IMG/VR virus record: IMGVR_UViG_3300012006_000003
Location: 1-64,000 of that record
DNA from: a virus
Strand: one strand, 5' to 3'
Length of the DNA stretch: 64,000 nt
Numbering within the stretch: the stretch's first letter is position 1; each line of letters starts with the position of its first letter. A model generated the notes under the pieces. It did no database searches. It was given only the letters and a program-made list of their open reading frames with translations, and was not told the DNA's origin. Below, one piece after another: positions 19,001 to 60,150 of the stretch. Position numbers and translations under genes: made by a program.

Positions 19001-22000
19001 GTATAAAGTGTGTAACTCTTTCTAATGTTTTACCATTAGTAATATAATTGTCTTCCTTATTTTTTGCAATATTTTTTTGCTGTGCAATAAGTTTTTCTTT
19101 TAATACTTTAATTGTCTCCTGGATGTCTGGTGCAAAGCTTTTTCTTTTACGTGATGTAATAAGTTTTTCAAACTTGCTAATCATTGTAGAGTATTTCTCC
19201 TTAGTTACAGGATCTGTTTCTACATTTTTTAATTGTTTTAATTGATCTGACATTGCAATAAGCTCATCTGTTTTATACTTTGTAGTACTAACATCTTCAC
19301 CTTTACGTTTAAAGTTAAATTCATCACCTTCATCAGCTTTTTGTTTTTCAATTGCTTCTTCAGCTTTTGTATTATAAGCATCAATAATTTTTTTAGCTGC
19401 AGGGTTTCTTAAAATATAAGTTGCAAACATGTCGTTGATAATCTCATCATCAAACTCATCTGTTTCTACTGCTTGTGCTTCTTCTGAATTATTAAAAGCA
19501 TTTTGTAATTCTTTATATAAGTCTTTAGGTAACTGATCTACTGGAGTATTTACTGAGTATAATTCTGCTTTTCCTGTTTCTTTTTTAGCGTTGAAAGCAT
19601 TGATGTTTTCCTCTTTAAGCTTGTTATATTTTTCTTCAATAATTTTAACTTGCTCAGAATCAGCTTTTTGTTCAAGTTTATATATTGTATACTCAGAGAA
19701 TTTAGATGTAATATCCTTGATAGAGATTAACTCACCATCTGCATTATCACTTCTTAATCCATCTTCAGAACTGTATAGAGTAAATACATTACCTGTTTTA
19801 GCATCTGTGATATCTACATACTCTTTCATGTTAATCACAACTGCAATGTCTTTAATTGTTAAGCCATCTTTTTTTACAGTTTTAATAACAGTCTTTACTT
19901 CAGTTTTTTCTAACGCATCAAGTTCTTTTTTCTCACTGTTTTCTAAACCTTCAATAGTATCTTGTAGTTTTTCATCAAGTGTCTCTGTACTTACATTTTC
20001 TCCTTTTAAAGCTTTTGCTTGAGATAACATGAAAAACAATTGCTTGTATTTTTTACTTCCAATTGGAATTACTTGTTTATTTGTCTCATCTAGAAATTCT
20101 TTTGGTGGTATACCATTTTCCATAAACTCTTGAAATTGATCAAGATCTATGAATATATTCATGTCAGCAAGCTTATTCAATAACTCATTGCTTTCTAGTG
20201 CAGCCATTTGCTTATTAACCATATCTACAAAATAGTCTTTTCTATTATTGTACATATTAGTCATCCAAGCTTGTGTCTTACTTACATGATTCATGAAAGA
20301 TTGTGGATCATGTAATAAGTTAATTGATTCTACTAATCTTTTAGATTCAGCAAATAACTTGTAATAATCTTTTACTTTTACAAAGCTCTCATCAATATCA
20401 GTATCAAATACATAAGACGGATCAATACCATTAGTATTCTTTAAATAGTTTTTATAAGCTATTTCAAATTTTGAATTTAATTGTTGCTCACCTCTACTTG
20501 AATCAATGATATGTGATATTTCTTCATCACTTAACTCAACACCATATGTCTCTTTAAACATATCTTGAGTTTGATTAAGTATTTCTATTTTTTCTTCATC
20601 AGTTAACTCCTCAAGGTTTTGTTCTTTTTTAACAGCTTCAAATATAGCTTCAGCTGTTTTAACTTTTACAGGTCTTGTTTGAAACTGTTCATGTGCATCA
20701 GCAAACTCTGATAAAGCTTTTAACTTATTTTCTTTTTTAACTAAGTCTGATTTACTTGCTGGATCTGTAGATTGTTTTAAGGTATCTATCTCAGACTTAA
20801 GTAAATTTAATTCAACATCAATAGTTGATGGGTTCAATATAAAGTTCATGTCTTGTTGAGACATGTTTTTCATTGTAGGATTATTTAATACGCTACCAGA
20901 GATTTTTAACATTCTCTCTGAAGTATTCCTAAATGCATGATTAGCATAAACATAATCTCTTATACCTACTTTCCAGGCTTTATTCAAAAGAGCTGCACTT
21001 TCAAATTCAGGAGTATTTTCATCATACTTACTTAAGTCAACAGGATTAGGGAATCTTTCTTTAGCATAGTTATAAGATTTTTCTACTGAATCTATGTTAC
21101 CTAAAATAGTATCAATTTTTTGTTGTTCTTTAGCACCAGTACCTTTTTCAAATCCAAGGGCTTCTTCAAACTCTTCTGGAGATAATTCTTTGAAAGAAGT
21201 AATATGTTCTTTAAAATAGTTTAAAGTATTTGTATCTAAAGCTGTATGTATCTGTGATGCAAATGCTTCACTCAACTCATCTTTAGCTTCTTTAGTATCT
21301 GCATTATCAATGTTACTAATTATATTATTCTGTACACCATAGTTAAATATACGGGAGTTGAAGAACTCTTCAGGATTTTTATATAAAGCTGTTAACTGAT
21401 CAGAAACATCTTTACCATGTTTAGCTCTCAAGTCTTTATACTCTTGATACTTTTCTTTATTAAATGTATTATTGTATCCGTAATCAAGACCACCTTTAAC
21501 TAAGTTTAATCCACCAGAAAATAATCCCATCAATGCACCAGAAGCAAATGTCTCCAATCCTTGTGAAGAAAACTGATCTTTTAATCCTTCATACCTTAAT
21601 GAGCTTAAACTTTTATTGTATAAATGAGCTCCTAACTCTTTATTCATGTAAGCAGTCTCATAATATTTCTCATTAGCAATAGAGATTACATCTTGTAAGT
21701 TTTCTTGTACACCCTCCATTAAGTTAGCTTTCAAATATCTACCGGCTACTTTAGCAGTTACACTTACTGGTGCTTTTTTAAAACCTTTTAATGAATTTTT
21801 AAATGAGTCTTCAACAAATTTGAATTCCCCTTTAGCAAGTTTTTTACCTACCTCAGCTGTCTTTTCAAGTACAATTTTACCACCTTTAAATGAATATACA
21901 TCATCTATTCTAGACTGCATTGCTTTTTTAGATACACCTGATTTTAATAAATTTGGTATAACAATTTTATTTGTTAGAAGAATTAAACCTGTATTCCACT

Positions 22001-23231
22001 TTAAAGTGTTCATACCTGCATCCTTTGCTGTTTTAGTTAAAGTATATTGTTCATCATTATTTGGAGCTCTACCATTCTTTTTATAGAACTCATTATATAA
22101 ATCATCATATACTTTATTATCATTCATACCACCTTCAAGTCTAGCTTCAGAAAGGGCCATGTTGATATTCTTTATATCTCTAAATAATCCACCGGCAGTT
22201 TTATTAGTACCTTGAGCTAATCTTGCTAATCCTGTTAAGTTATCAGAGTTTTTTCCAATACCAATTATAGCATCATATGTATTTTCAAGTGGGTTTAAAA
22301 ATTTACCTACTTTACTTTTACCAATGTTTTCAGCTGCATTCCACATCTTTCTAGCTCCACCAATTGAATTAGCTTCTTTAAGTGTAGTATTAATAGCTTT
22401 GTAACCATCTGTGGCTAAACCAATTGCATCTCCAATTTTACCAATTTTTCTAGCATTGTTTGCAGTAGCTGCAAAGAAAGATCCACCACCAGTTACTGGA
22501 GCAAGTAAAGCACCAGCTGCTTCTTCTAGAATAGCTTCACTTATAATACCTGCAGTATAAGCAAAACTCATTGCTGTATTATTAAAGAATGCACCCATTC
22601 CTTTTTTAGATGATTGACCAATAGCTGCTGCATTTTCATATGCTCTTGCATCTTCAAGATCTGCACTGAAATCACCTTGCATCATTTTAATTAAACTCTT
22701 TGGACCTGCAACAAAACCTCTACCAAGTAATGGCATGAATGAATTCTTCATCATTCTTGTAAAGTCATCACCCATAGTAGTATTAGCATTGAACATAGCT
22801 TCATTATCTCTTATTGGAGAAAAACCTATAGCATCAAACTTTTCTTGACCATATGCTGCATATCTTTTATAAAATGAATTACCTGAAGGTCCTGCATTAT
22901 AGGCATTTACTTGAGCATATTGATTCTTATCATGATTTGTTGCAATACGCATTTGAAAACTTTTACCAATTGCTTCTTTCAAATCAGTTGGTGAAATCTT
23001 TTTGTTTGGATTCTGAGAAGCCGGTCTTCCAGGTGCATGTCCTGTGATACCATCCTGTATAACATAGTTAGGATTTGTGCTATTTAATGGAGGTGTGACT
23101 GGAAAATAATCAATTTTATTATCTTTTAAATCATCACCTTCAAAAGCAGACATGCTTTTACTATTAATTGCAGGACCACTTACTTTACCAAATTCTATTC
23201 CTAATGGGTTTAATGAGCTGTTGTTTTCCAT
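16008..23231 (-). CDS. Giant crAss-like virion protein with PD-(D/E)XK nuclease domain
   Basis: 2407 aa. The N-terminal 250 residues carry strings typical of a conserved crAss-like large cargo protein (NAGPSGNSFYKRYAAYGQEKF and SFMPLLGRGFVAGPKSL). They include Gly/Ala-rich amphipathic segments such as AAGALLAPVTGGGSFFAA that could interact with membranes on ejection. Residues about 1570-1680 form a RecB/Cas4-like nuclease: GEIDLLLID with D1592, IVDFKTG with D1606 and K1608, then QQYTYARLL. A short beta domain resembling KOW/SH3 (GDTVIVKEPIPGEKDKL) precedes the acidic C-terminus. Its start overlaps the previous stop as TAATG, implying translational coupling, and its stop is 4 bases before the polymerase gene. 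It probably travels with the polymerase in the virion. The exact role, ejection channel or polymerase partner, is unknown. Confidence 0.88.
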   Translation of the reverse strand: MENNSSLNPLGIEFGKVSGPAINSKSMSAFEGDDLKDNKIDYFPVTPPLNSTNPNYVIQDGITGHAPGRPASQNPNKKISPTDLKEAIGKSFQMRIATNHDKNQYAQVNAYNAGPSGNSFYKRYAAYGQEKFDAIGFSPIRDNEAMFNANTTMGDDFTRMMKNSFMPLLGRGFVAGPKSLIKMMQGDFSADLEDARAYENAAAIGQSSKKGMGAFFNNTAMSFAYTAGIISEAILEEAAGALLAPVTGGGSFFAATANNARKIGKIGDAIGLATDGYKAINTTLKEANSIGGARKMWNAAENIGKSKVGKFLNPLENTYDAIIGIGKNSDNLTGLARLAQGTNKTAGGLFRDIKNINMALSEARLEGGMNDNKVYDDLYNEFYKKNGRAPNNDEQYTLTKTAKDAGMNTLKWNTGLILLTNKIVIPNLLKSGVSKKAMQSRIDDVYSFKGGKIVLEKTAEVGKKLAKGEFKFVEDSFKNSLKGFKKAPVSVTAKVAGRYLKANLMEGVQENLQDVISIANEKYYETAYMNKELGAHLYNKSLSSLRYEGLKDQFSSQGLETFASGALMGLFSGGLNLVKGGLDYGYNNTFNKEKYQEYKDLRAKHGKDVSDQLTALYKNPEEFFNSRIFNYGVQNNIISNIDNADTKEAKDELSEAFASQIHTALDTNTLNYFKEHITSFKELSPEEFEEALGFEKGTGAKEQQKIDTILGNIDSVEKSYNYAKERFPNPVDLSKYDENTPEFESAALLNKAWKVGIRDYVYANHAFRNTSERMLKISGSVLNNPTMKNMSQQDMNFILNPSTIDVELNLLKSEIDTLKQSTDPASKSDLVKKENKLKALSEFADAHEQFQTRPVKVKTAEAIFEAVKKEQNLEELTDEEKIEILNQTQDMFKETYGVELSDEEISHIIDSSRGEQQLNSKFEIAYKNYLKNTNGIDPSYVFDTDIDESFVKVKDYYKLFAESKRLVESINLLHDPQSFMNHVSKTQAWMTNMYNNRKDYFVDMVNKQMAALESNELLNKLADMNIFIDLDQFQEFMENGIPPKEFLDETNKQVIPIGSKKYKQLFFMLSQAKALKGENVSTETLDEKLQDTIEGLENSEKKELDALEKTEVKTVIKTVKKDGLTIKDIAVVINMKEYVDITDAKTGNVFTLYSSEDGLRSDNADGELISIKDITSKFSEYTIYKLEQKADSEQVKIIEEKYNKLKEENINAFNAKKETGKAELYSVNTPVDQLPKDLYKELQNAFNNSEEAQAVETDEFDDEIINDMFATYILRNPAAKKIIDAYNTKAEEAIEKQKADEGDEFNFKRKGEDVSTTKYKTDELIAMSDQLKQLKNVETDPVTKEKYSTMISKFEKLITSRKRKSFAPDIQETIKVLKEKLIAQQKNIAKNKEDNYITNGKTLERVTHFIQKFKEDKYTYKGNKLIAEAFAKTIDTEGLTTNSINKFMAEIDTTLPALSNSGYTKDTIDGIKSTSTLVKKYLKDLLKEEATTPIKSKKDLLVDIQSFISENAYEYTRTAGTYLDKQLRSFFTPGQTPKFDEARISREAYDELFGPDSFIKPLKAKIDSGELFVLADNIKVFDEESGVAGEIDLLLIDQTGKLQIVDFKTGEQKKWNGFQKDTRTESGLNKIEDYTLQQYTYARLLKKMTGLDAEINIMPLEITINQKEYKIASVKQPSNQKLLGLDKWYFPLNPEFRDAKSKIDAVIKISDTLGIKVATAMNPKLITEFERLGYPEDVIKTLSKEDQKNIITDDIPYIKYQEQLDNDLNALAFADEIAEAKGKQVKKVKEVSLADKEALRDQVRALPDDMIYGLHVTGDDVAKNIYDTQFKYNLGTALQGTVGVGSKESLYNALLKLQKGESPHRGQLGMFILAFPKSEFGESTLEKKVSLDTIEDQMLETYPEMTVGKIPTKFNYGYFSNGKLYTKNDALSKKSPTVNSISNGDNIIDTVKTKPVTNQIKDAKEFFITADKDPVGRIYINMAPLKDILVVPDNTLTVIDKKTNKEIVNTQLNPEGAVVFEAMQGRLFVVAKINGQLVPFYKSSAGTSDKIQGDWYPFFGYTGAWLVKGNVDKATGKMPYSPEIDKVAELLNKNFVFPDMYINRATNLIKDQSGKVVYDFNNHFKINRLWKKEFQSQTGTKLDYKIKGLKENTRTESGLMALITSLNTTELDSSGTDKEFDEWLDLINKNIKNGAVQPTSTTVNKKNVVEKQVGPRITIEEVKNKLESINEGPVLEEYLVNLREGLVNNQITIEDRPAIVDLVNAKKEEFKLANTKLSKTILHKGDTVIVKEPIPGEKDKLFADKGSKITVIKSTETGVEFQYGKDKKTLPLSKLDKHVTTLSIQQAKDAQLGEQKIDEMDKEVIAESIKKAQDFIDKKGALGKAETEASEKSLDTIYEDLLNDLDC
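18192..18524 (-). other. PD-(D/E)XK nuclease domain in the 2407-aa protein
   Basis: Acid D1592 in GEIDLLLID, the DxK pair D1606/K1608 in IVDFKTG, and the Gln-Tyr helix QQYTYARLL are arranged as in RecB/Cas4-type nucleases. The spacing of 14 residues between the two acids is typical. All catalytic residues look intact. Confidence 0.8.
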
Positions 23232-46766: not shown

Positions 46767-48071
46767 TTAAGCAGTAATGTCAATTAAAGGAACACAAGCT
46801 GTGATAGCTTCAATTACTTCTAACTCAACACATTGACCACAGTTTGCAGTCCACTCATTAACAAATTGTTCAAATGTAGCATCAGGACCATTAGTAATAA
46901 TCTCTAATAAATATTGATCATTATCAAATGTACCAGTTGGGTTATTGAAACGTGGAACTGAATGTTGTAAATAGTATCTTGTATAGAAAGCTGTTCTATT
47001 GATAGTATTTAAGATTTGATCTCCTTGAGTCACCTCTCTGATTCTGAAATCTGTAGCAAAGAAGTTTTGTCTGTATCTCTCAGATAAGATTACATCTCTA
47101 GCAACTGATTCACCAAGACCCATTGCTTGTAAACCTGTACACTCAGTAACAACACATAATCCTTCAAATTCACATGGAGCACCATTGTAATCAACTAATG
47201 AAGCATACAATTTAACTGGCTCTTTTTCAAAGAAGTCAGAAGTTTGGAATGTACAGTCATTGAAGTCTGTACCAACATAAGCACCAAATAAAGTAATACC
47301 TGCGTATTGACCTATTACGTGTCCTGGAGATACATAGTTATCCCAAGTACCACCGATTGTGTAACCAGCTGGAGCAACAAATGTACTTGTATCTGTTCCT
47401 GGAGCATACCATAAAGAATTATCTTCAGCAGTAACTACTGGTAATACAAATGGAGAGATAACTGTTCTTGCAGAATTTACAATTGTATTTGGTAAAATCT
47501 CACCAACAATTGCTTGAGCCCATTGGATCATTACTAAAGTACCATCAACATCTACTGGAGCAATTGCTCCTGCTGGACAACATCCTGTGTAAGCTTCAAC
47601 AGTTAAGTATGCATTGTGATTTAAGAATCTTAATGCTGGAGATCCTTTAACGTCAATACGTAAAGAATAAGTCTCATCACATAAAAAATCTCTTTCACAT
47701 GTACCACCTTGAGCTTCAGTGAATGGAGTGAATCCAATGTTAATTACATTTTGTTGAGCTGGATTAGGATCTACTCTGTAAAATCTATTAATGTATTTAG
47801 GATTAATAGTTTTAGATTTGTTAGATTCTAAGTACCCACCATGAGAACCAATCTTGTCTTTAGAATACAATGATCCTGAAGCAAGAATTAAAGGGCAACA
47901 TCCTGTAGGTGCTGAGTTAATATTAACTAAATCCCAAGTTTTTGGATCAACAAAAGCAAAGTCACCTGTAGCAAGAATGTTACCTGGTGTACCTAGTTGT
48001 CCATTTCCTAAATCTGTGAAACCTTGTGTTCCAACAAAAGCCTTTTGAAAGGCATGATTAAAATAAGCCAT
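46767..48071 (-). CDS. Abundant-type virion protein (auxiliary capsid or sheath-like), 434 aa
   Basis: No catalytic motif. It begins AYFNHAFQKAFVGTQGF and contains GDFAFVDPKTWDLV, repeated Cys pairs (TGCCPLILA, GTCERDFLC, TGCCPAG) and a C-terminal block with CGQCVELE. I associate this protein with crAss-like structural modules, where it is a major non-capsid virion protein. The coding sequence uses more C/G-ending codons such as TTC and AAC than most neighbours, as does the capsid gene, and has its own terminator; both suggest high expression. The 63-base A/T-rich spacer upstream has a hairpin. Auxiliary head protein is the best guess, but tail or fibre placement cannot be excluded. Confidence 0.72.
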   Translation of the reverse strand: MAYFNHAFQKAFVGTQGFTDLGNGQLGTPGNILATGDFAFVDPKTWDLVNINSAPTGCCPLILASGSLYSKDKIGSHGGYLESNKSKTINPKYINRFYRVDPNPAQQNVINIGFTPFTEAQGGTCERDFLCDETYSLRIDVKGSPALRFLNHNAYLTVEAYTGCCPAGAIAPVDVDGTLVMIQWAQAIVGEILPNTIVNSARTVISPFVLPVVTAEDNSLWYAPGTDTSTFVAPAGYTIGGTWDNYVSPGHVIGQYAGITLFGAYVGTDFNDCTFQTSDFFEKEPVKLYASLVDYNGAPCEFEGLCVVTECTGLQAMGLGESVARDVILSERYRQNFFATDFRIREVTQGDQILNTINRTAFYTRYYLQHSVPRFNNPTGTFDNDQYLLEIITNGPDATFEQFVNEWTANCGQCVELEVIEAITACVPLIDITA

Positions 48072-48110
48072 AACTTTTTAATTTTAATTTATAAACATAT
48101 ATATAATATA

Positions 48111-48129
48111 CTAAAACATTTTGTTTTAG
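48111..48129 (-). terminator. A/T-rich hairpin between the Dps-like and 434-aa genes
   Basis: A 7-bp stem CTAAAAC/GTTTTAG with a 5-base loop lies just after the Dps-like gene and is followed by TATATTATATATATG. The stem is A/T-rich and the trailing tract alternates T and A, so it may be a weak terminator, a 5' stability hairpin for the 434-aa mRNA, or chance. Confidence 0.35.
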
Positions 48130-48134
48130 CAAAA

Positions 48135-48587
48135 TTATTTTAAAAATAATAATTTATACTTAGCTGAGTTAAGAGATGACTTAACTAAATCTAAATCATT
48201 TACTATCTCAGAGTAAGGCATTTTAGATTGCAAACTTGTTACCATTGTAACTAAGTCTCTAATATAACTTAAACCTTCTGTAGGTGATGCAAGAGTTCTT
48301 GGTGCTACTTCTGAATACTCAAGTATTCTTTCTGCTGCTCCTTGATATCCTTCTGCTAGGTCATCTGCATGTCCTGGTAAGGCATCATATAATTCATTTA
48401 AAGCTTTATGTGCAGCAAATGCTCCGGCACCTTGAACTTTTAAATGTAGTTTATGAAAACTAGTTGCAGCATTCATTAATTCAGTTACACAAGCAGCGGT
48501 AGTAGAATCTATTGATCCTCCACTTGGAGCTGAATAAGATGCAGTAGATGATGTAGTATCTCTTTTAAGTAATTTGGGTTTTTCCAT
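48135..48587 (-). CDS. Dps-like ferritin-family protein, 150 aa
   Basis: The segment HKLHLKVQGAGAFAAHKALN followed by LPGHADDLAEGYQG matches the first two helices of Dps. H48, H60, D75 and E79 have exactly the spacing of the inter-subunit ferroxidase ligands of Listeria Dps (H31, H43, D58, E62); only the D47 equivalent is changed, to N64. The length of 150 aa and the all-helical remainder (AAERILEYSEV, LSYIRDLVTMV) fit the family, with a 30-residue Ser/Thr-rich N-terminal tail. Dps proteins form 12-mers that oxidise iron with peroxide and shield DNA. Encoded between an adaptor and an abundant virion protein, it may be a virion component or a symmetric building block reused structurally. Iron binding is predicted, not proven. 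Confidence 0.78.
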   Translation of the reverse strand: MEKPKLLKRDTTSSTASYSAPSGGSIDSTTAACVTELMNAATSFHKLHLKVQGAGAFAAHKALNELYDALPGHADDLAEGYQGAAERILEYSEVAPRTLASPTEGLSYIRDLVTMVTSLQSKMPYSEIVNDLDLVKSSLNSAKYKLLFLK

Positions 48588-48598
48588 TGTTATATATA

Positions 48599-49297
48599 TT
48601 AATTATTTCTTTCTGCTGTTTCTGTTCCTCTAGAGAATTGGTTACCAGATTCAATATCACCAGCTAATACACTTACAGCCTCATCAATTAAAACCTCTAC
48701 AATATCATCTTTAAATTCACATTCAACATTAGTTACCGTTTGTGTTCCTGTATAAGGATCTACACAACCTTGTACTTCTATTCTTACTGGTTGTCTGTAA
48801 TACGTTAATGCACCAGAACTAATATCAAAATCATTATTGGTATATACATTAACTCTATTACTCTTTAAAGTAGCAAATGTTTCTGCCCATTCAAAGCTAG
48901 GTTTCTTAGCATCATCAAAAAGCAACTGATTTAAGTTACCTTCCTCTGCAAGATACACTGACATTCTTCTATCATCACAACATCCTTTCTTAGCAGTAAC
49001 ATCTACACGTTTCCATTGTAGATAATCAGCAGGTAAGTCTGAGTAAGATGATATATCAGATTTAACAAATGGTATATTAATAGTACCTAGTAATAATTGT
49101 AAATCATCTATTCTTCTAGTTGATTGTTCATCACCTTCTTGCACAACATTAATACCGTGAAGTTGTCTTCTGACCCATTCTACTTGAGCTTTATTAAACG
49201 CCTCTACAACCTGCCAACATTCAATGTTGTCATAGTCTTGACTATCTAATTTGTTTAGCCTTTGTTTTACTTTTATTACTAATACACTATTTTGCAT
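48599..49297 (-). CDS. Head-tail adaptor or ring-type protein, 232 aa
   Basis: The N-terminal helices (VIKVKQRLNKLDSQDYDNIECWQVV, interrupted by Asp-rich turns) and AFNKAQVEWVRRQL, a central beta region with YSDLPADYLQWKRV, and a closing helix EFKDDIVEVLIDEAVSVLAGDIES match the layout of crAss-like adaptor/ring proteins related to P22 gp4-type connectors. The sequence GCCDDRR in the middle could be a loop. The gene precedes the Dps-like gene by 11 bases and follows the 124-aa gene by 3. A structural connector between portal and tail is the most likely role. Confidence 0.72.
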   Translation of the reverse strand: MQNSVLVIKVKQRLNKLDSQDYDNIECWQVVEAFNKAQVEWVRRQLHGINVVQEGDEQSTRRIDDLQLLLGTINIPFVKSDISSYSDLPADYLQWKRVDVTAKKGCCDDRRMSVYLAEEGNLNQLLFDDAKKPSFEWAETFATLKSNRVNVYTNNDFDISSGALTYYRQPVRIEVQGCVDPYTGTQTVTNVECEFKDDIVEVLIDEAVSVLAGDIESGNQFSRGTETAERNN

Positions 49298-49300
49298 GTG

Positions 49301-49675
49301 TTATCCTTTTACACGTTTAAGTCTTGGATTTTTAGCTTTAGCTTTAGCACTAGCTTTTCTAGTTGATGCAGCTAATATAGCTCCAGCAGCTTGTTTACTT
49401 ACACCTTGTTTAGCAGCTATCTTAGATTGTACAGCTTTAAAACCTGGATGTGTAGTACCTCCAGCTTTCATTTTTTTATTTTGCATTTTAGCTCCAGAAA
49501 TTCTATCAGCTGCAGTTGGTTTAGGATTATTATCTATACCAGCTATAATAGATAAGATACCAAATGTAGACCCACCTTTTTTCATAGTAGGTCTTTCAGT
49601 TACACATTTACGTGAAGCTGATCTTACTTTAGCATTTTTGCAAGATGTTAAAACTGCTTTATTTGTAGTTGCCAT
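49301..49675 (-). CDS. Small basic virion-type protein, 124 aa
   Basis: A Lys/Ala-rich protein with two Gly-Gly motifs after basic residues (MKKGGSTFG, KMKAGGTTHP). The C-terminal 50 residues (FKAVQSKIAAKQGVSKQAAG, then ILAASTRKASAKAKAKNPRL) form a helical basic module that I have seen at the end of small proteins in many unrelated large phages; its function is not known. The charge suggests DNA contact or packing inside the capsid. It lies in a run of five such genes separated by 2-11 bases. Confidence 0.7.
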   Translation of the reverse strand: MATTNKAVLTSCKNAKVRSASRKCVTERPTMKKGGSTFGILSIIAGIDNNPKPTAADRISGAKMQNKKMKAGGTTHPGFKAVQSKIAAKQGVSKQAAGAILAASTRKASAKAKAKNPRLKRVKG

Positions 49676-49677
49676 AA

Positions 49678-50568
49678 CTATTTCTTTTTAGATTTAACTA
49701 CTCCACCTTTCTTTTTTGTCATGTCATATACCTTCTTAGCTACATAACCTATAGGACTACCAGAAATTACACCTTCTTTGAACGCTGCTGCTGCACTTCT
49801 AGGTTTTGGTTTTGCGTCTCCAGCTATTTTACTTTTAAGGGCACTATATTTTTTTATATTAGCTTCACGCATCTCATCTACTGAAGGTCTTGGACCAACA
49901 GTTTTTTTAATAGGTGCTGTTGCACCTCTCTTTGGTATATTACCACTAGTTTTAGTAGATGGAGATTTAGTATTTATAACAGCATCTTCATATTTAGTTT
50001 TAGGCAGAGGTTTGTTATACTTAAAACCAACATTTGGATCTCCAAATTCTATACTTGGTTTTCTAACTGGTTCAGTACTTTTAGGAGCAGCTGTTGTTTT
50101 AGCACTTACGCCAGCTCTTACTCTTGATGAATCAACTTTTGACTTAATACCTTTTGAGTTAGGACCTTTAGGAGAAGTAGCGTTTATTCTTGTCATTGCT
50201 GCTCTTGGAGTTTCACCAGGTATACTTGTTGGTGTTGTTTCAAACATTCCTACACCAGCATTAGAAGCTCCTTTTTTTGGTGTTGCTTTAGCAGCTGGTT
50301 TTCTAGGATAACCCGTTGACATACCATCTTCAGCTTTAGGTAAAGATTTCATTACCATTGCATTTCTAGCATCATTAGCTTTTCTAAAAGTAGTTAATAC
50401 ATGTTCTTTTTTTACTGAACCACCTTTTCTACCAAATCCCATTTGACTTGATGTACCCATATTTTCTTGTGGAATACCAAATATATTTACTGGAGCTTTT
50501 GCTACTGCAGAACCTCCTAGTTTCATTTTCATTGCACCACCGCATTTAGCGCATCCTAACTTTTTCAT
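49678..50568 (-). CDS. Basic Gly-Gly-motif protein with zinc-knuckle-like N-terminus, 296 aa
   Basis: The chosen start at 50568 (MKKLGCAKCGG) has a TATATTATG leader and avoids overlap with the previous gene; an in-frame ATG at 50592 would add eight residues that overlap it. CAKCGG at residues 6-11 resembles half of a zinc knuckle. Basic Gly-Gly motifs follow (KMKLGGSAV, FGRKGGSVKK). Most of the chain is Lys/Pro/Ser/Thr-rich and probably disordered. The C-terminus KKKGGVVKSKKK nearly repeats the end of the 513-aa protein. No enzyme motif was found. It may be an internal head protein that binds DNA. Confidence 0.68.
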   Translation of the reverse strand: MKKLGCAKCGGAMKMKLGGSAVAKAPVNIFGIPQENMGTSSQMGFGRKGGSVKKEHVLTTFRKANDARNAMVMKSLPKAEDGMSTGYPRKPAAKATPKKGASNAGVGMFETTPTSIPGETPRAAMTRINATSPKGPNSKGIKSKVDSSRVRAGVSAKTTAAPKSTEPVRKPSIEFGDPNVGFKYNKPLPKTKYEDAVINTKSPSTKTSGNIPKRGATAPIKKTVGPRPSVDEMREANIKKYSALKSKIAGDAKPKPRSAAAAFKEGVISGSPIGYVAKKVYDMTKKKGGVVKSKKK

Positions 50569-50579
50569 AATATATAAAT

Positions 50580-50852
50580 TTAACAGTTCCACTTTCTTAA
50601 AGCAAGAGCCTTTCTAGTTGGCTTTCCTTTTTCATCTTTCATTGGTCCATCAACTCCTGACATTCTAGCACAAAAACTTTTACGTCTCTTAGCATCTTTG
50701 CTATCAGGATTTAATTTAGATGGTTTAGTAGTAACTGCCATCTTAAGTTTAGAACCAGGATTAGCTTTTCTATAGGAAGCAACACCTTTAGCATTTAAGC
50801 CTCCGGTTTTGCTTTTTCCTACAGATCTTGTCCATGCAGGTGTCTTTGCCAT
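50580..50852 (-). CDS. DUF6321-like small phage protein, 90 aa
   Basis: The sequence pattern SKTGGLNAKGVASYRKANPG, then RRKSFCARMSGVDGPMKDEK and KPTRKALALRKWNC is a small basic family found across many unrelated large phages (cyanophages, pelagiphages, crAss-like phages), catalogued as a domain of unknown function; I believe DUF6321, though the number is from memory. Conserved Cys residues sit at FCARM and at the C-terminus. The length is typical. Given its charge and position beside other basic structural-type proteins, a virion or DNA-packaging role is likely. It follows the 513-aa gene by 2 bases. Confidence 0.8.
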   Translation of the reverse strand: MAKTPAWTRSVGKSKTGGLNAKGVASYRKANPGSKLKMAVTTKPSKLNPDSKDAKRRKSFCARMSGVDGPMKDEKGKPTRKALALRKWNC

Positions 50853-50854
50853 GG

Positions 50855-52396
50855 TTATTTCTTTTTATTTCTTTTAACAATACCACCTTTTTTCATCATC
50901 ATTTTTTTCTCTGTCTCAGAAATCTTTTCTTTTAATCTTTCTGATCTATCTTCATTACCTCTTGAAGCAGCTCTTCCTGCTCTTCTTTCTCTACTTTCAT
51001 TCAACATACCTCTTACCTTATTACCAAAAGTTGCTCTTGGTTGTGCACCACTTACAGGGTTTGAACTTGAAGGTGTACTTGATGAAGTACTTGGACTTGT
51101 ACTTGTACTTGCAGTTGATGTTGCTGCAGCTTTTGGTTGAATGATTTCTTTTTTAGCTTCAATAGTATTAGCAATTGGTGCTATAGGTTTCATTTCCATT
51201 TTGTCAACCTTATTATCTGCTTTTGGAGTTGCAGGTGTTACAGGTTTTTTAACTACAGGTTTTTTAACTACAGGTTTAGTTTCAGCTTTCTTAGTATCCG
51301 CTTTCACCATTGTTGGTGCTTCATACTTTTTCTTATCTGGATTAAAACCATACCATTTATCTGATGGAGATCTACCCCACTTATCTTTTCCAGCAACTTT
51401 GCTTCTGTCACCTGTGAATTTTACTGAACTACCATCACCTTTTTTATTACCGGCAAGTTTATCAAGCATATCTGGAATTGTACTTTTTTTAGATTTACTT
51501 TTATCATCAACAACAGGTTTAGTATCTTCTTTCTTTTTACCAGCTTCAGGTTTTTTAGTATCTTTTTTAGCTTTATCCTCTTTGCTTTTAGAAGAGTCAT
51601 ATAGTTTTTTAATACCATATGCTGCTGCTGCAGCACCTACAATAGTAGCACCTATTTTACCAGCTTTAACTAGTTTAGCTTTTTTAGCAAGTTTAATAGC
51701 AAGTTGATTACCTTTAGTTACACCACCTCTATTGGTATTCTTACCTAATGTTTTTTTAAGTACTTCTTTAGGCTGTTTTAATGGATCTCTTGTAACACCT
51801 CTACTTACACCACCTCTTGTTCTAGGTTTAGATACACTAGTTGCAGATTTTTCAGCAGTTGCTTTTTCAGAAGCAAGTCTTTCATTTGCTCTTGCTTTTA
51901 TATCAGCTAAAGCTTTTCTTTTAGAACCTACACCTGGAGTTTCACCTTTAGAAGCACCTGCACGAGTTCTTGGTTTAGTGTCTACTAGTGGTTTCTTTTC
52001 TAATGGTGTTTTCTTTGCATACTTACCAGATGTACCTGGAGTATTTCCTTTACTTACACCACCACGTGTTCTTGGAGTAGTTGCAGTAGTTGTAGTAGTA
52101 ACTGGTTTAGATGCAATAGGTTTAACTGGTTTTTTAACTGCAGGTTTAGGTGCTGGTTTAGAAGCCGTAGTAGTTGGTCTAACAGGAGCTTTATATCCTT
52201 GACCTTTTACAACTTGTCCCATAGTTTTTGGATCAGTAGGTTTTAATTTAGTTGAACTTACTACAGGTTTGGGAGCTGGCTTAGGCTTAGGCGCAGGTTT
52301 GTTATTTATCCCACCAGGATTAATACCTTTTGGGTTAGGACCTTTAGATCTTGAGTTAGATTTTAATATCCCTTTTGGATTTATTTTACTTGCCAT
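50855..52396 (-). CDS. Long disordered Lys/Pro/Thr-rich protein, 513 aa
   Basis: Low-complexity and strongly basic. A short unit of the form [PK]-RTRGG-[VA]-[ST]-KG-[NE]-TPG recurs about four times in residues 110-240 (TPRTRGGVSKGNTPG, KPRTRAGASKGETPG, KPRTRGGVSRG, TNRGGVTKGN). A single hydrophobic stretch (IGATIVGAAAAAYGIKKLY, near residue 255) could be a membrane or amphipathic segment. A Ser/Thr-rich stretch follows. The C-terminus MMMKKGGIVKRNKKK matches the tail of the 296-aa protein. No known domain. Features suggest an internal head protein condensing DNA, with the hydrophobic segment perhaps acting during ejection. Its function is unproven. Confidence 0.68.
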   Translation of the reverse strand: MASKINPKGILKSNSRSKGPNPKGINPGGINNKPAPKPKPAPKPVVSSTKLKPTDPKTMGQVVKGQGYKAPVRPTTTASKPAPKPAVKKPVKPIASKPVTTTTTATTPRTRGGVSKGNTPGTSGKYAKKTPLEKKPLVDTKPRTRAGASKGETPGVGSKRKALADIKARANERLASEKATAEKSATSVSKPRTRGGVSRGVTRDPLKQPKEVLKKTLGKNTNRGGVTKGNQLAIKLAKKAKLVKAGKIGATIVGAAAAAYGIKKLYDSSKSKEDKAKKDTKKPEAGKKKEDTKPVVDDKSKSKKSTIPDMLDKLAGNKKGDGSSVKFTGDRSKVAGKDKWGRSPSDKWYGFNPDKKKYEAPTMVKADTKKAETKPVVKKPVVKKPVTPATPKADNKVDKMEMKPIAPIANTIEAKKEIIQPKAAATSTASTSTSPSTSSSTPSSSNPVSGAQPRATFGNKVRGMLNESRERRAGRAASRGNEDRSERLKEKISETEKKMMMKKGGIVKRNKKK

Positions 52397-52407
52397 GATC
52401 TTTCAGA

Positions 52408-52578
52408 TTAACATTTTTTACCTTTACTTCCACCCATCTTCATTTTAGGTGAAGCTTGTGGTTTGTTAACTTTACCCGGTGTTTTACCACCTGCATTTTT
52501 TAATGCATAAACTGGAGTGTTGGTTCCACCAACTCTACCTGTTGCTTTTTGCTGTACGTTTACTTTTGCGTTAGCCAT
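52408..52578 (-). CDS. Small basic Gly-Gly-motif protein, 56 aa
   Basis: The start is taken at 52578 (MANAKVNVQQKATGRVGG) because the in-frame ATG at 52602 lies in the terminator hairpin region and adds only MLFLKLYI. The product is Lys/Gly-rich and ends KMKMGGSKGKKC, sharing the basic Gly-Gly motif and a terminal Cys with neighbours. No domain was recognised. It is the first gene of the basic cluster after the 336-aa gene. Confidence 0.6.
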   Translation of the reverse strand: MANAKVNVQQKATGRVGGTNTPVYALKNAGGKTPGKVNKPQASPKMKMGGSKGKKC

Positions 52579-52591
52579 GATATATAGTTTT

Positions 52592-52619
52592 AAAAAAAGC
52601 ATACCAGCATTACTGGTAT
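52592..52619 (-). terminator. Intrinsic terminator after the 336-aa gene
   Basis: A 7-bp stem ATACCAG/CTGGTAT (52601-52607 and 52613-52619) with a 5-base loop is followed on the minus strand by GC and seven T. It lies 14 bases after the stop of the 336-aa gene. Confidence 0.75.
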
Positions 52620-53734: not shown

Positions 53735-55351
53735 TTAGAATGATCCACCTGTGATTGGATTTCTCATAACAATTTTCAATACTTTAGTTGGATCTTTAAC
53801 CCAAATAGCTGGCATTGTTTGAGACATCATTACACGGTAACCGTTGAATTGTCCAGAAGATTGGAATCCTTGAGATCTACCCATGTAATCCATTGTTCCA
53901 TTTTGGTACCACCATTTCAATTGATTATCCCAAGATAATTTCAACATGTAAATGTTGTCATTAGTGTTATCTGTGATATCAAAGATAATGAATGAGTAAG
54001 AAGATAATGGGAAACCATCAATGATTGGGTTCTCAATATCATTAGTATGAACATTGTCAAATGCAGGATTCAATACAAATTTCACATTAGCCAAGAATGG
54101 AATAACGTAAGAAGTGTAAGCAAATCCAAAGTTTAAGTCCATACCTTTACCAGTGATAGCACCGATATCAGCAGCTTGAATCAATAAACCTGAAGAAATA
54201 GCTTCTTGTTTAATTGCTTCATTAACCATTCTCATACCACCCATACCTGTTTGAACAACAAGTTGACGTTTAGGATCTGGTCCTTGGAACTCAACTTTAC
54301 CATTGAAGAAGTTATATAACTCTCCTCTGAATAAATCTAAGTTAAAGTTGTTTTTGTTGTAGATACGTTTGAAAGAGTTATCTAACTGTTTCCATAAACC
54401 TACAGATAATCTTACATCATCTGGTCCGTCTTGACGTACTCTACCCCCGTGACCCCACATAAGGTAAGTCTCAATATCAGAAGCAATCTTAGTTAAGTGA
54501 GCAGCCTCCATGTTAGTTAAGAAAGTTCTTGATAAATCACCATTATCAAATGCTTTTTTAACTGAGTCTTTACCCATTACTTTAACCATATCATCCAAAG
54601 ATGAAATAGATGGATCTAATCCTTTCAAGTGAGATCTCCAGATTTCAGTTACAGGAACTGTACCATCTGCATTCATACCACCTTTGATCATTAAATCTGC
54701 TCTAGAAGAGATAGAGTAATGAACGTGAGCTTCAGCACCACCAACAAAGTTATAATACTCACGGAATCCTGTGTTAGTTTGGATGTCTGAGAATCTCTCA
54801 CCATACTCACCTCTAGCAGAACCTTTACGGAATACTTTAGTACCATTAGCTAAATAAGCATTATCAATGTACTTGTAGTTATCATTGTTAACTAACTGTA
54901 CTGTATAGATGAATCCGTCACCAATTGGTAAGATATCATCAGCAGTAATGTACATCTCAACTCCATTGTATTTGTCATAAGTGATGATATCACCATGTCC
55001 AAATTCTCTTTTGTTAAGCTTGATTTTGAAAGTAGTACCTTCAATACCTTTAGCATCATTACCTGGTTCAATGTCTTCAACAATGTAAGGAAGATCAATT
55101 GAAACTGGAGTTTGCCATTTGTACTCACCTCTTGCGTTATCTACATTGATAACGTTTTTTCCACCAAAAGAAGATAACTGGTATAAAGGCATTTCAACTT
55201 TCTGAGCCATAGCCCATAAGTCTACTGGACCTAAATCCATTGGTTCTGCATCTTTTAGCATGTTTTGTAAATGGTAAGAATCAACATGTGAACTAGCATT
55301 GTATGCTGTATCACGTAGGAAAATACCATTATTTAATACTGGAGTTGCCAT
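53735..55351 (-). CDS. Major capsid protein (HK97-fold, crAss-like), 538 aa
   Basis: Length, place after portal and probable scaffold, and the sequence itself fit the crAss-like major capsid protein: an N-terminal arm (DTAYNASSHVDSYHLQNML), a beta-rich body with GEYKWQTPVSIDLPYI and EGTTFKIKLNKREFGHGD, a helical spine segment (KKAFDNGDLSRTFLTNMEAA), and a C-terminal beta region with SQTMPAIWVKDP. It self-assembles into the icosahedral shell. Codons ending in C (TTC, AAC) are visibly more common than in neighbouring genes, and a strong terminator follows at once; both fit very high expression. The 32-base A/T-rich leader has no Shine-Dalgarno. Confidence 0.9.
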   Translation of the reverse strand: MATPVLNNGIFLRDTAYNASSHVDSYHLQNMLKDAEPMDLGPVDLWAMAQKVEMPLYQLSSFGGKNVINVDNARGEYKWQTPVSIDLPYIVEDIEPGNDAKGIEGTTFKIKLNKREFGHGDIITYDKYNGVEMYITADDILPIGDGFIYTVQLVNNDNYKYIDNAYLANGTKVFRKGSARGEYGERFSDIQTNTGFREYYNFVGGAEAHVHYSISSRADLMIKGGMNADGTVPVTEIWRSHLKGLDPSISSLDDMVKVMGKDSVKKAFDNGDLSRTFLTNMEAAHLTKIASDIETYLMWGHGGRVRQDGPDDVRLSVGLWKQLDNSFKRIYNKNNFNLDLFRGELYNFFNGKVEFQGPDPKRQLVVQTGMGGMRMVNEAIKQEAISSGLLIQAADIGAITGKGMDLNFGFAYTSYVIPFLANVKFVLNPAFDNVHTNDIENPIIDGFPLSSYSFIIFDITDNTNDNIYMLKLSWDNQLKWWYQNGTMDYMGRSQGFQSSGQFNGYRVMMSQTMPAIWVKDPTKVLKIVMRNPITGGSF

Positions 55352-56703: not shown

Positions 56704-56756
56704 AAATAGACTATTTTTTAATATTGTTTTTTGCCACTATATAGCTAAGTCTATTT
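56704..56756. repeat. Inverted repeat around the portal stop codon
   Basis: Perfect 9-base arms AAATAGACT/AGTCTATTT (56704-56712 and 56748-56756) separated by 35 bases, one arm spanning the portal gene's TAG stop. On the minus strand the distal arm runs into TTTTAAA. It may be a weak terminator, an RNA processing hairpin or chance in an A/T-rich gap. The surrounding 113-base gap holds nothing else clear. Confidence 0.3.
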
Positions 56757-59504
56757 CTTCTTATTATCAGTTTTGCTTTTAGCATCAAATTTGTTCTTAT
56801 TCTCTCTAGCAATTTGTAATTGTTTATCTGCTATTGACTGTTGTGCTTGTAGTTTTTCTCTTTCAAGTTGCATCTTTTGAGAATCTGAAGATTGTCTATT
56901 TGATTCTTTTTGTCTTTCAAGATTCATCTGACTAGTAAATTGCTCAGATTTTTGTATATCTCTTAATGAATCATTATAGTCAGACATCTGATTTTGATTA
57001 ATATCTTGAGTAGCACCAAATCCAGCAGCTCTAATTTCAGCAACAAGTATATCTCTTTGTCTATTTTTCTCTTCTCTGATGTCTGTATTATCAGCTTTAA
57101 GTTTTTCTGCTTGAGCTTGAGCTTGTAATTGCTGTTCTTGCATTTGTTGTTGATGTTGCATTTCTGCATCTTTCTGCGCTTTGATTTTTTGCTCAGAATC
57201 TTTAAGTACTGTATTTAACTCAGCTATACTTTCTGATTGTACTAATTTACCTAAGTCATAGATAGATGCACCTGTAGTATTATTATTTAAGGCCATATTT
57301 TTTAACTGTTCTAATACGGCTCTGTAATTAGCTTTAGTAGTTGCAAATATGTTTAAGTCTCTCATAAGCAAATCTGTACCATTAATCTGGAAGTTTACTT
57401 TCTCGTCTGCACCAGTAACATAAGTTAATCTTGCTGATGGTTTAGTTGAGTGATAGAATTGAGCTAAGTCAGTTCTCATCTGATGTACTCTTGGCATTAA
57501 GTAATCTGAGTGTTGTATGAAATACATTTCAGTCTGTGCATAAGAAGCACCTACTGCTTGCTCAACTCCTGTTGCAGTTTGTTGAGATAGTTGTTGACCC
57601 ATTCTTTGTGGGTTAATACCTATAACTTCATATGCTTGTTGTTTCATATATGTAGCTAACTGGATCCTTGACATTAACCTATTAGTCTGTTCTAGGTCTA
57701 ATTTCTGAAAGTGTTGAAAGTTAAGAGCATTCTCTGTATTAGTAATACTGGTATCTAAAGGGAGCATCTGAAAATTCTTCATTGCTACATATGCTTTAGC
57801 TAAGTTGTTCTTACCCCAATCTTCACCCATTGAGTGTCTTGGTAATGCATTCTGATCAAGTAAGATAACTGTACCTAGTTCATCTACTAGTATATCCGCT
57901 ATTTGGTTATTAACAATGTTATATCCTATCTGGAATGGTTTCATTAAATCAATCAATGCTGTAGACTTAGTATTTCTATCTGAGAATACTGCACCCTCTA
58001 CTGGTAGTTTACATCCGTAGATAGAGTTATCACCTTTAAATTGAAATCTTAATGGGCCTATATTTTGTTTATCAATACCAATATACAGAGGAGTAAAACC
58101 ACCAGGATTATTCATACCCCAGAATGATGGAATATTAGGTCCAATTTTTACACCACCCCATACTTCATTAATCCAGATCCAATCTATGTGCTCTCCATAT
58201 ACTAGATTATCTTTAGTTTTGTTTTTAAAGAGTCTTGTATCATATATAGGATTATCAGTTACTTTATAGTCTTCTGTAATAATCTCTGTTATTACTTCAC
58301 CTGAGTCAGTAATTTTAGTTAGGTGACCTACTTTTCTCTGAGATTTCCAGTAACCTGTAGTTACTCTCAACAAGTATGCAGTACCTTGATCATAATAATC
58401 TTCACCTTCTCTTAAGATGTAGTTTACAATATCACCCGCGTTGAAAATATTATTAGCTGCTGCAGTAGAATATTGACGCATACCTAGTGAAGGCATGTTA
58501 GTATTCCACTCATGTGATTTAGTAGCATCATAAAATGATCCATCATTTTGTACACCACCAATATTATATCCTGCTGATCTAATTGGATAGATAGCTTCTA
58601 GTGATGCCATCTGATCTTCATTCATCATATAACCATACTTATCAATAACATCTGATACTGTAAGCATATCTGTTTTACCAACCCAGTTAGATTGTGATAT
58701 ATATCTTGCATCAGGAGATTTGTGATAAAATGTAAGTACAGGATTCCATAACTCAACATCATAGTCATCTTCCATCATACGCATATGCCAGAATTCTCTA
58801 TCTGTAATAAGCATATCTCTGAAACCTCTTTCCTCTAACTCATCCATTCTAAATCTTTCAACATCTACTTCATGTTGGTGAGTAGCCCATTGCTCTACCA
58901 TTGATCTATAATCCTTTTTAAAGAATTGTTCAATCTCTGGTAATGATTTTAATTTTTCTGGATTCAATTGTTGTTGTGCCTCTTCAGATTCAGGATCCAT
59001 ACCTTGTTCTACCATTGCAGCAATAATTTTCATGCTTGCATCAGACATAAGTACATCCTCTACCATCTGTCTTTTTTGTTCCATCATCTCATTATAAGAT
59101 CCTTCATCTACTGCACGGTAAGATAACTTACTTGATCTTTTAGCAAACTCAGCTACAAGAACATTAATAACATTAGGAATAATTGGATAAAACTTTAACT
59201 CAAGTGCGGATGCATCTTCTTTAGTAAGCGTCTCAATGATATCTCTGTAGTCATTGTCTTCTTCAACTATATAGTCAGTTCTATCAATAACACCTTTAGC
59301 TAACTTATAGTTTTTCATTAGCCTACGCGCATTTCTTTTAATCTGTTTAAGACCATTCCACTCTAACCAATCAAGATTCCATGCAGCCCACTTGTCATCT
59401 TTTTCCTTTTTAGGAATAAACTGTAATGGTTGCGTAATACTACCTAATCTATTGTGTTCTGTTTTAGCTCCGTTTTTGAGCTGTAATGCGTTGAAAACCT
59501 GCAT
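56751..59504 (-). CDS. Portal protein, 917 aa
   Basis: The portal forms the dodecameric DNA channel at one capsid vertex. The N-terminal region (AAWNLDWLEWNGLKQIKRNA, then YKLAKGVIDRTDYI) and the wing/stem sequence with PIIPNVINVLVAEFAKRSSK and YDVELWNPVLTFYHKSPDAR are typical of crAss-like portals. A clip/stem-like block with NPQRMGQQLSQQTATGVEQA follows. The last 140 residues are a Gln/Glu/Lys-rich coiled coil (QQQMQEQQLQAQAQAEKLKA), as in the long barrel that extends P22-type portals into the head. It ends one base after the preceding gene's stop. The homing endonuclease gene separates it from TerL. Confidence is high from sequence and order. Confidence 0.9.
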   Translation of the reverse strand: MQVFNALQLKNGAKTEHNRLGSITQPLQFIPKKEKDDKWAAWNLDWLEWNGLKQIKRNARRLMKNYKLAKGVIDRTDYIVEEDNDYRDIIETLTKEDASALELKFYPIIPNVINVLVAEFAKRSSKLSYRAVDEGSYNEMMEQKRQMVEDVLMSDASMKIIAAMVEQGMDPESEEAQQQLNPEKLKSLPEIEQFFKKDYRSMVEQWATHQHEVDVERFRMDELEERGFRDMLITDREFWHMRMMEDDYDVELWNPVLTFYHKSPDARYISQSNWVGKTDMLTVSDVIDKYGYMMNEDQMASLEAIYPIRSAGYNIGGVQNDGSFYDATKSHEWNTNMPSLGMRQYSTAAANNIFNAGDIVNYILREGEDYYDQGTAYLLRVTTGYWKSQRKVGHLTKITDSGEVITEIITEDYKVTDNPIYDTRLFKNKTKDNLVYGEHIDWIWINEVWGGVKIGPNIPSFWGMNNPGGFTPLYIGIDKQNIGPLRFQFKGDNSIYGCKLPVEGAVFSDRNTKSTALIDLMKPFQIGYNIVNNQIADILVDELGTVILLDQNALPRHSMGEDWGKNNLAKAYVAMKNFQMLPLDTSITNTENALNFQHFQKLDLEQTNRLMSRIQLATYMKQQAYEVIGINPQRMGQQLSQQTATGVEQAVGASYAQTEMYFIQHSDYLMPRVHQMRTDLAQFYHSTKPSARLTYVTGADEKVNFQINGTDLLMRDLNIFATTKANYRAVLEQLKNMALNNNTTGASIYDLGKLVQSESIAELNTVLKDSEQKIKAQKDAEMQHQQQMQEQQLQAQAQAEKLKADNTDIREEKNRQRDILVAEIRAAGFGATQDINQNQMSDYNDSLRDIQKSEQFTSQMNLERQKESNRQSSDSQKMQLEREKLQAQQSIADKQLQIARENKNKFDAKSKTDNKKK

Positions 59505-59505
59505 A

Positions 59506-60150
59506 TTATAAAAATTTTAAATTAAATCTATTGTCTTTAATAAGTCTTGTCATATGACTTGGTGATTTTTTAAAAACACTAGCCACGTCTTGAATTGAAT
59601 TGTAAATAATATTATTAACTGTATCTATTACTTTTTTTCTAGTTTTTGAATAAATTTTTTCTTTTTCTTCTTGTGTTTTTACACGACCTATTTGAGCATT
59701 ACCTATTATTACTTTTTGATTTTGAGAAATGGTTTTACCAAAATTAGGATTATTTATACCAGTCATACGGTTTATCATGTATTCTCTTTTTTCTATTGAC
59801 CAGGTTTTACCATACATGGGATTTTTACTCCCTTTTTTACTTTCTGATATTTTTTTAATTATATCAATATTTGGCTCAAATAAACCTTCTCCACCACTTG
59901 TTAAATTTACTAATTTTATATTGCATGCTTTATAAAGTTTAATAAATTCCTTTTCTTTTTTGCAAGCAGTTTCCCATGATATATCAGTAATTAATATATC
60001 AATACTATAATCAATTTTATTAGTTACATTTTTCCAATATTTGTTTCTACTATGTTTTGAATAAGCTCTTTTAAAAAAAGCATCAGAACCTATACCAATA
60101 TAAAATGGTAAATTTGTATCTTTTCTTATATGTCTATATAAATATGGCAT
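59506..60150 (-). CDS. GIY-YIG homing endonuclease with NUMOD motifs, 214 aa
   Basis: A selfish nuclease that cleaves related phage genomes lacking it. The GIY-YIG module occupies residues 3-90: YLYRHI, YIG at 17-19, R28, the Glu-rich helix KKEKEFIKLY and NLTSGGEG. Two NUMOD3 DNA-binding motifs follow (GSKNPMYGKT at 107-116, GINNPNFGKT at 131-140). Residues 174-209 form a NUMOD1/helix-turn-helix-like end (IQDVASVFKKSPSHMTRLIK). The gene fits between TerL and portal with gaps of 6 and 1 bases and is visibly more A/T-rich than both, which suggests insertion of a free-standing homing gene into an operon that is otherwise contiguous. No intron or intein was seen. Catalytic residues look intact. 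Confidence 0.9.
   Translation of the reverse strand: MPYLYRHIRKDTNLPFYIGIGSDAFFKRAYSKHSRNKYWKNVTNKIDYSIDILITDISWETACKKEKEFIKLYKACNIKLVNLTSGGEGLFEPNIDIIKKISESKKGSKNPMYGKTWSIEKREYMINRMTGINNPNFGKTISQNQKVIIGNAQIGRVKTQEEKEKIYSKTRKKVIDTVNNIIYNSIQDVASVFKKSPSHMTRLIKDNRFNLKFL

What the first reader, a model, noticed from the sequence alone, without database searches (positions are those of the whole stretch)
48135..48587. Phage Dps-like protein with conserved ferroxidase spacing in a structural operon
Seen: H48, H60, D75 and E79 reproduce the spacing of Dps ferroxidase ligands, with one change (N64 for Asp). Established: Dps 12-mers oxidise iron with peroxide and protect DNA. Inference: it may protect phage DNA from oxidative damage in the host, or be built into the head.
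Basis: partly seen in the sequence, partly recalled or inferred. Interest (0 to 1): 0.7.

Follow-up and report, generated by a model that had tools for sequence, protein, structure and literature searches.

The report
Phage mini-ferritin in capsid operon
A freshwater crAss-like phage carries, between a tail-ring gene and a capsid gene, a small protein built like the bacterial iron-oxidising, DNA-protecting protein Dps, with its iron site almost intact but altered in one fixed way; the family was already known in phages, but this placement and this altered iron site had not been described in anything I could search.

Summary
ORF 48135-48587(-) (150 aa) has H48, H60, D75 and E79 at exactly the Dps ferroxidase spacing, with N64 for Asp. 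It belongs to DUF5856 (PF19174, E 9e-13) and phrog_858, and an AlphaFold model (core pLDDT 93-99) is a four-helix bundle whose nearest solved structures are almost all Dps. In 193 unique relatives the four ligands never change, and in the deepest alignment (down to 12% identity) they are four of only five invariant columns. Position 64 is never Asp. Instead His45, at the E. coli Lys48 position of the same low-affinity iron site, is fixed. crAss001-type gut DpsA proteins have the reverse pair (Lys45/Asp64). The gene sits between a ring gene and the gp36-like auxiliary capsid gene; it is there in 49 of 81 loci collected by the ring gene and absent without visible remnant in 30, so it is an accessory gene, not an assembly essential. 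Best reading: a late-expressed Dps-type mini-ferritin that oxidises Fe2+ and removes peroxide in the infected cell; virion packaging is possible but unproven. Dps-like proteins in crAss-like phages were already annotated (crAss001 gp7, 'putative DpsA'). New here: the site-B swap and the operon position.

The parts
48135..48587 (-). Dps-like (DUF5856 / phrog_858) gene, 150 aa
48522..48587 (-). residues 1-22: disordered N-tail with conserved K/R (K3, K5, K8, R9), net charge +1 to +4 across the clade
   Evidence: pLDDT about 45; charge count
48453..48455 (-). His45, invariant, E. coli Lys48 position (low-affinity iron site)
   Evidence: PMC9140674
48444..48446 (-). His48, ligand (E. coli H51)
   Evidence: invariant
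48408..48410 (-). His60, ligand (E. coli H63)
   Evidence: invariant
48396..48398 (-). Asn64 (E. coli D67), N/Q/G/E/K in relatives, never Asp
48363..48365 (-). Asp75, ligand (E. coli D78)
   Evidence: invariant
48351..48353 (-). Glu79, ligand (E. coli E82)
   Evidence: invariant
48599..49297 (-). tail ring protein gene (232 aa), directly upstream, 11-bp gap
   Evidence: phrog_29507; matches csAssE-Sib ring protein E 2e-17 and Lbo-JY46 protein E 9e-12
46767..48071 (-). auxiliary capsid protein gene (434 aa), directly downstream, 63-bp gap
   Evidence: AF2 model best match 7qof chain a, crAss001 capsid, 333 aa = length of gp36, E 1.4e-10, prob 1.00
53735..55351 (-). major capsid protein of the same operon
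   Evidence: PF23898 Crass_capsid E 5e-32

Best explanation
The ORF encodes a Dps-type mini-ferritin of the phage family DUF5856, translated late together with the ring and auxiliary capsid proteins. Subunits pair across a two-fold axis, so that H48 and H60 (with H45) of one subunit and D75 and E79 of its partner form an iron site. That site binds Fe2+, oxidises it with peroxide or oxygen, and so keeps Fenton chemistry away from phage DNA while it is being replicated and packaged. The second iron sub-site is altered: the Lys/Asp pair of E. coli and gut crAss DpsA is replaced by His45/Asn64. Shown here: homology, fold, ligand invariance, the paired exchange, operon position, purifying selection, accessory distribution. 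Inferred: dimer or 12-mer, metal, activity, timing, benefit.
For: DUF5856 49.5 bits over a 34.6 cut-off; phrog_858 E 3e-19. AF2 helices 26-50, 56-85, 102-122, 126-148, pTM 0.79. PDB fold matches almost all Dps, prob 1.00, TM mostly 0.5-0.7. H48, H60, D75, E79 unchanged in 193 unique sequences and, with G83, the only invariant columns in a 15-sequence alignment reaching 12% identity. In the predicted A-B hairpin (turn at 51-55), D75/E79 lie 15-19 residues along helix B from H60, too far to share a site with H48/H60 in one chain; their joint invariance therefore fits the Dps inter-subunit centre (PMC9140674). Dps proteins with Asn at this position exist: Asn67 of Nostoc Dps4 takes no part in the iron site of an enzyme that oxidises iron (PMC6675082). 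The gene is accessory within a conserved operon, as expected of a fitness gene rather than a scaffold part.
Against: No activity, oligomer or timing data. The generic Ferritin family hit is below cut-off (15.8 of 24.5 bits) and no PDB fold match reaches E 0.001. The model has no BC helix. A site without Asp64 might bind Zn or Mn instead. Position between two virion genes also fits a virion role.
Confidence: 0.58

Rival explanations
1. It is a virion protein: a Dps-like particle or dimer held in or on the head, made in register with the ring and auxiliary capsid proteins, and carried into the next host.
For: Gene lies between the ring gene and the gp36-like auxiliary capsid gene, 2-11 bp behind the ring gene in most relatives. 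cr108_1 has its copy in the structural block too.
Against: Absent without a substitute in 30 of 81 related operons. The crAss001 homologue gp7 lies outside the structural block and is not among the virion proteins named in the passages I read of the two virion papers. The phiR1-37 proteome paper was not available, so the basis of its note is unverified.
Confidence: 0.25
2. It is a DNA-condensing or assembly helper: the basic N-tail binds DNA and the Dps-like core multimerises to compact the genome before packaging; the metal site only stabilises the dimer.
For: Conserved K/R-rich disordered N-tail, net +1 to +4 in all 70 sequences counted; Lys-rich neighbours at 49301-52602; E. coli Dps condenses DNA through such a tail (general knowledge).
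Against: Ligands are the most conserved residues of the whole protein, more than structure alone would need. Relatives in other phages mostly have N-tail charge 0 or +1. Whole protein net charge is -2.
Confidence: 0.12
3. The ligand spacing is a chance coincidence in an unrelated helical protein.
For: Single-sequence Dps match is weak (E 0.004).
Against: Profile match 7e-5, fold match, invariance P 1.8e-5.
Confidence: 0.02

Closest known systems
crAss001 gp7 'putative DpsA protein' (NC_049977 4551-5000) and other Steigviridae copies
   Same: phrog_858/DUF5856-like (tested on the cr106_1 copy); H48, H60, D75, E79, G83 all present; crAss-like phage
   Different: Has Lys45 and Asp64 (canonical) where the window clade has His45 and Asn64; lies among tRNA genes upstream of the terminase, not in the capsid operon; 12-18% identity to the window for this type
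cr108_1 'DNA-binding protein' QOR58977.1
   Same: Dps fold match, DUF5856-like (32.7 bits, just below cut-off), inside the structural block
   Different: Lys45/Asp64 type; other neighbours (small ORFs, then HU/IHF and tail tubular genes)
Yersinia phage phiR1-37 g280
   Same: DUF5856, 34% identity in A1, His45 type, noted as structural protein
   Different: Glu at 64, A-B loop three residues shorter, jumbo myovirus, no crAss operon
Bacterial Dps (E. coli Dps; H. pylori NAP)
   Same: Fold and four of five ferroxidase ligands at identical spacing
   Different: Asp/Glu at position 64 lost, no BC helix in the model, weak sequence similarity
Cyanobacterial His-type Dps (NpDps4, TeDpsA, TlDps1)
   Same: Asn at the E. 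coli 67 position in NpDps4, more His in the centre (PMC6675082)
   Different: Extra His is 78 and 164 there; the phage keeps Asp75 and puts the extra His at 45

Membership tests
DUF5856 (PF19174) / phrog_858 | profile score over curated cut-off (DUF5856); significant phrog hit | tested here: met
   49.5 bits vs 34.6; phrog_858 E 2.9e-19
Dps (ferritin superfamily) | ferritin-like four-helix bundle | tested here: met
   AF2 model and Foldseek vs PDB
Dps (ferritin superfamily) | inter-subunit ligands H51, H63, D78, E82 | tested here: met
   H48, H60, D75, E79 invariant in 193 sequences; that they meet between subunits is inferred
Dps (ferritin superfamily) | acidic residue at position 67 | tested here: not met
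   N64; relatives N/Q/G, E in 4 sequences, no Asp
Dps (ferritin superfamily) | short BC helix at the two-fold interface | tested here: not met
   no helix between residues 86 and 101 in the model
Dps (ferritin superfamily) | Pfam Ferritin PF00210 over cut-off | tested here: not met
   15.8 bits vs 24.5
Dps (ferritin superfamily) | dodecameric shell | not testable with these tools
   single-chain prediction only
Dps (ferritin superfamily) | iron oxidation | not testable with these tools
   needs assay
Dps (ferritin superfamily) | DNA binding | tested here: inconclusive
   basic N-tail conserved, core net charge -4
crAss001-type DpsA | Lys45/Asp64 canonical site B | tested here: not met
   His45/Asn64
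His-type Dps | His78 in place of Asp | tested here: not met
   D75 is kept in every relative

The most novel reading that the evidence does not exclude
A mini-ferritin is a regular, optional virion component of an aquatic crAss-like lineage: made in register with the ring and the auxiliary capsid protein, held in the head, with a remodelled His45/Asn64 ferroxidase centre that acts on iron or peroxide in the particle or on entry into the next host.
Probability: 0.22. Interest if true: 0.75.

Novelty: new variant of a known kind. Interest (0 to 1): 0.48.

Why it matters
Phage Dps-like proteins are usually treated as stray metabolic genes. Here one sits at a fixed place between two virion genes across many genomes, is missing in several branches of one part of the lineage, and keeps its metal site more strictly than anything else in the protein. 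That makes 'what does a phage want with iron and peroxide late in infection?' a testable question. The clean alternation Lys/Asp versus His/Asn at one iron sub-site gives a natural experiment on how Dps enzymes tune their second iron.

Tried and rejected
Chance spacing: rejected. Core structural protein needed for assembly: rejected, since 30 of 81 ring-anchored loci pass straight from ring to auxiliary capsid gene. Recent pick-up in one genome: rejected, since ring and Dps distances correlate (Mantel r 0.55, 0 of 500 shuffles) and the position is constant. A terminator hairpin behind the gene: a perfect stem exists in the window, but such stems are no commoner than in shuffles (14 vs 22 expected). 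Homologue in csAssE-Sib or Lbo-JY46: none found. Direct sequence match of the ring or the auxiliary protein to PDB: none useful; the auxiliary protein needed a model. Papers on DUF5856: none held. The phiR1-37 proteome paper is not held. The widest alignment was too diverse for a genome scan; a narrower one gave a single locus.

Full report
What is there. The window is almost the whole of a 64,095-base virus record. Its portal (phrog_6547), major capsid protein (Crass_capsid, E 5e-32) and ring protein 2 (CrAss_Ring_2) mark it as a crAss-like phage. The ORF at 48135-48587 on the minus strand encodes 150 aa.

Family. It belongs to Pfam DUF5856 (49.5 bits, cut-off 34.6) and to phrog_858, named 'starvation-inducible transcriptional regulator'; the generic Ferritin profile is hit only weakly. 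Single-sequence and profile searches of the PDB return Dps proteins first. AlphaFold2 on 106 aligned relatives gives four helices with core pLDDT 93-99 and a disordered tail of about 22 residues. Foldseek's best PDB matches are almost all Dps with probability 1.00, TM 0.5-0.7 in most rows, though none below E 0.001. In the viral model library the best matches are uncharacterised phage proteins and several Dps-annotated ones.

Ligands. 348 viral stretches encode relatives. Adding distant phages and loci collected by the ring gene gives 193 unique proteins, mean pairwise identity 41% (sampled). H48, H60, D75, E79 and G83 do not vary. In an alignment that also includes crAss001 gp7 and other gut proteins, down to 12% identity, these five are the only invariant columns. 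The chance that four of the seven near-invariant folded positions fall on the five Dps ligand positions is 1.8e-5. Position 64 is N 86, Q 63, G 29, E 4, K 1, gap 10, and never Asp.

The site-B exchange. In E. coli Dps the low-affinity site is Lys48 and Asp67 of one subunit with Asp78 of the other (PMC9140674). Window position 45 corresponds to Lys48. In the aquatic and other-phage DUF5856 set it is His in 192 of 193 (one gap), with no Asp at 64. In the seven gut proteins examined it is Lys with Asp at 64. An Asn at this place is compatible with activity: Nostoc Dps4 has Asn67, which takes no part in its iron site, and still oxidises iron (PMC6675082). That His45 binds metal is my inference. 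H. pylori NAP also has His there, with Glu at the Asp67 place (seen in the alignments).

Place in the genome. Upstream, 11 bases away, is a ring protein (phrog_29507; matches the csAssE-Sib ring protein). Downstream, 63 bases away, is a 434-aa protein whose model best matches a 333-residue chain of the crAss001 icosahedral capsid (E 1.4e-10); crAss001 gp36, the auxiliary capsid protein, is 333 aa and follows the ring genes gp34/gp35 directly (PMC10172136). The Dps-like gene is therefore inserted between two genes that are neighbours in crAss001. The loci fetched with the Dps-like protein (80 of 80) all keep ring then Dps-like, followed by the auxiliary gene wherever the contig reaches that far. 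Because those were collected by the gene itself, I repeated the sampling with the ring protein of a divergent relative: 49 of 81 have the gene, 30 lack it with the auxiliary gene following at once, 2 were undecided. On a ring-protein tree this needs 7 changes, at least 3 on well supported branches, confined to one part of the tree.

Function. Ligand invariance above all other residues argues for a working metal centre. Given the hairpin of helices A and B, the H48/H60 pair and the D75/E79 pair cannot meet within one chain, so the conserved set makes sense only in a Dps-like dimer (inference from the model's helix limits). The accessory distribution argues against an essential head part and for a fitness function during infection, most simply iron and peroxide control around replicating DNA. 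The operon position and the 'structural protein' note on phiR1-37 g280 keep virion packaging open. A gut-phage survey made a related oxidative-stress proposal for DPS genes of other phages (PMC8008677).

Known or new. crAss001 gp7 is annotated 'putative DpsA' and many Steigviridae carry it, so 'a crAss-like phage has a Dps-like protein' is not new. I found no text on DUF5856 and none on Dps in the crAss genome papers and review searched. The fixed His45/Asn64 variant and the ring/auxiliary capsid position across a lineage are, within what I could search, undescribed.

Limits. No multimer prediction; the search for related loci keeps only the best 80 per scan; metagenome habitats are not given by the tools, so 'aquatic' or 'freshwater' rests on my recollection of the IMG sample numbers and not on a test; the FastTree ring tree has many weak forks; the host of the window phage is unknown, though a related contig is binned with a Chitinophagaceae genome.

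Noticed in passing
49301-52602: Block of Lys-rich small and large proteins (64, 513, 90, 304, 124 aa) between the 336-aa gene and the ring gene; size and number differ strongly among relatives and no homologue was found in L205. The 90-aa one is DUF6321 (E 1e-24). Possibly DNA-binding.
   Followed up: partly
48072-48134: The 63-base gap behind the Dps-like gene starts with TTTTG and holds TATATTATATATA in the window and similar letters in many relatives; could be a promoter for the auxiliary capsid gene.
   Followed up: partly
56751-59504: Nearest named portal is that of Leptolyngbya phage Lbo-JY46, a cyanophage (33% identity over 82%), though crAss-like phages are described as infecting Bacteroidetes.
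   Followed up: no
L205: A relative of the operon lies on a 45-kb contig binned with a Chitinophagaceae genome, a hint to the host phylum.
   Followed up: partly
L205, L208, L215-L218, L221, L223: Within the crAss-like lineage the Dps-like protein comes with a normal or a 3-residue shorter A-B loop at the same locus, which suggests replacement by recombination.
   Followed up: no
59506-60150: NUMOD3/HNH-type homing endonuclease gene between portal and terminase.
   Followed up: no
4070-16003 and 16008-23231: Very long ORFs of 3977 and 2407 aa on the minus strand, not examined.
   Followed up: no
BFVD models A0A6J7WIS1, A0A6J7XDU5, A0A6J7WPK9: Uncultured phage proteins named prohead protease match the Dps-like model: possible fusions of a Dps-like domain with a head-maturation protease.
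   Followed up: no
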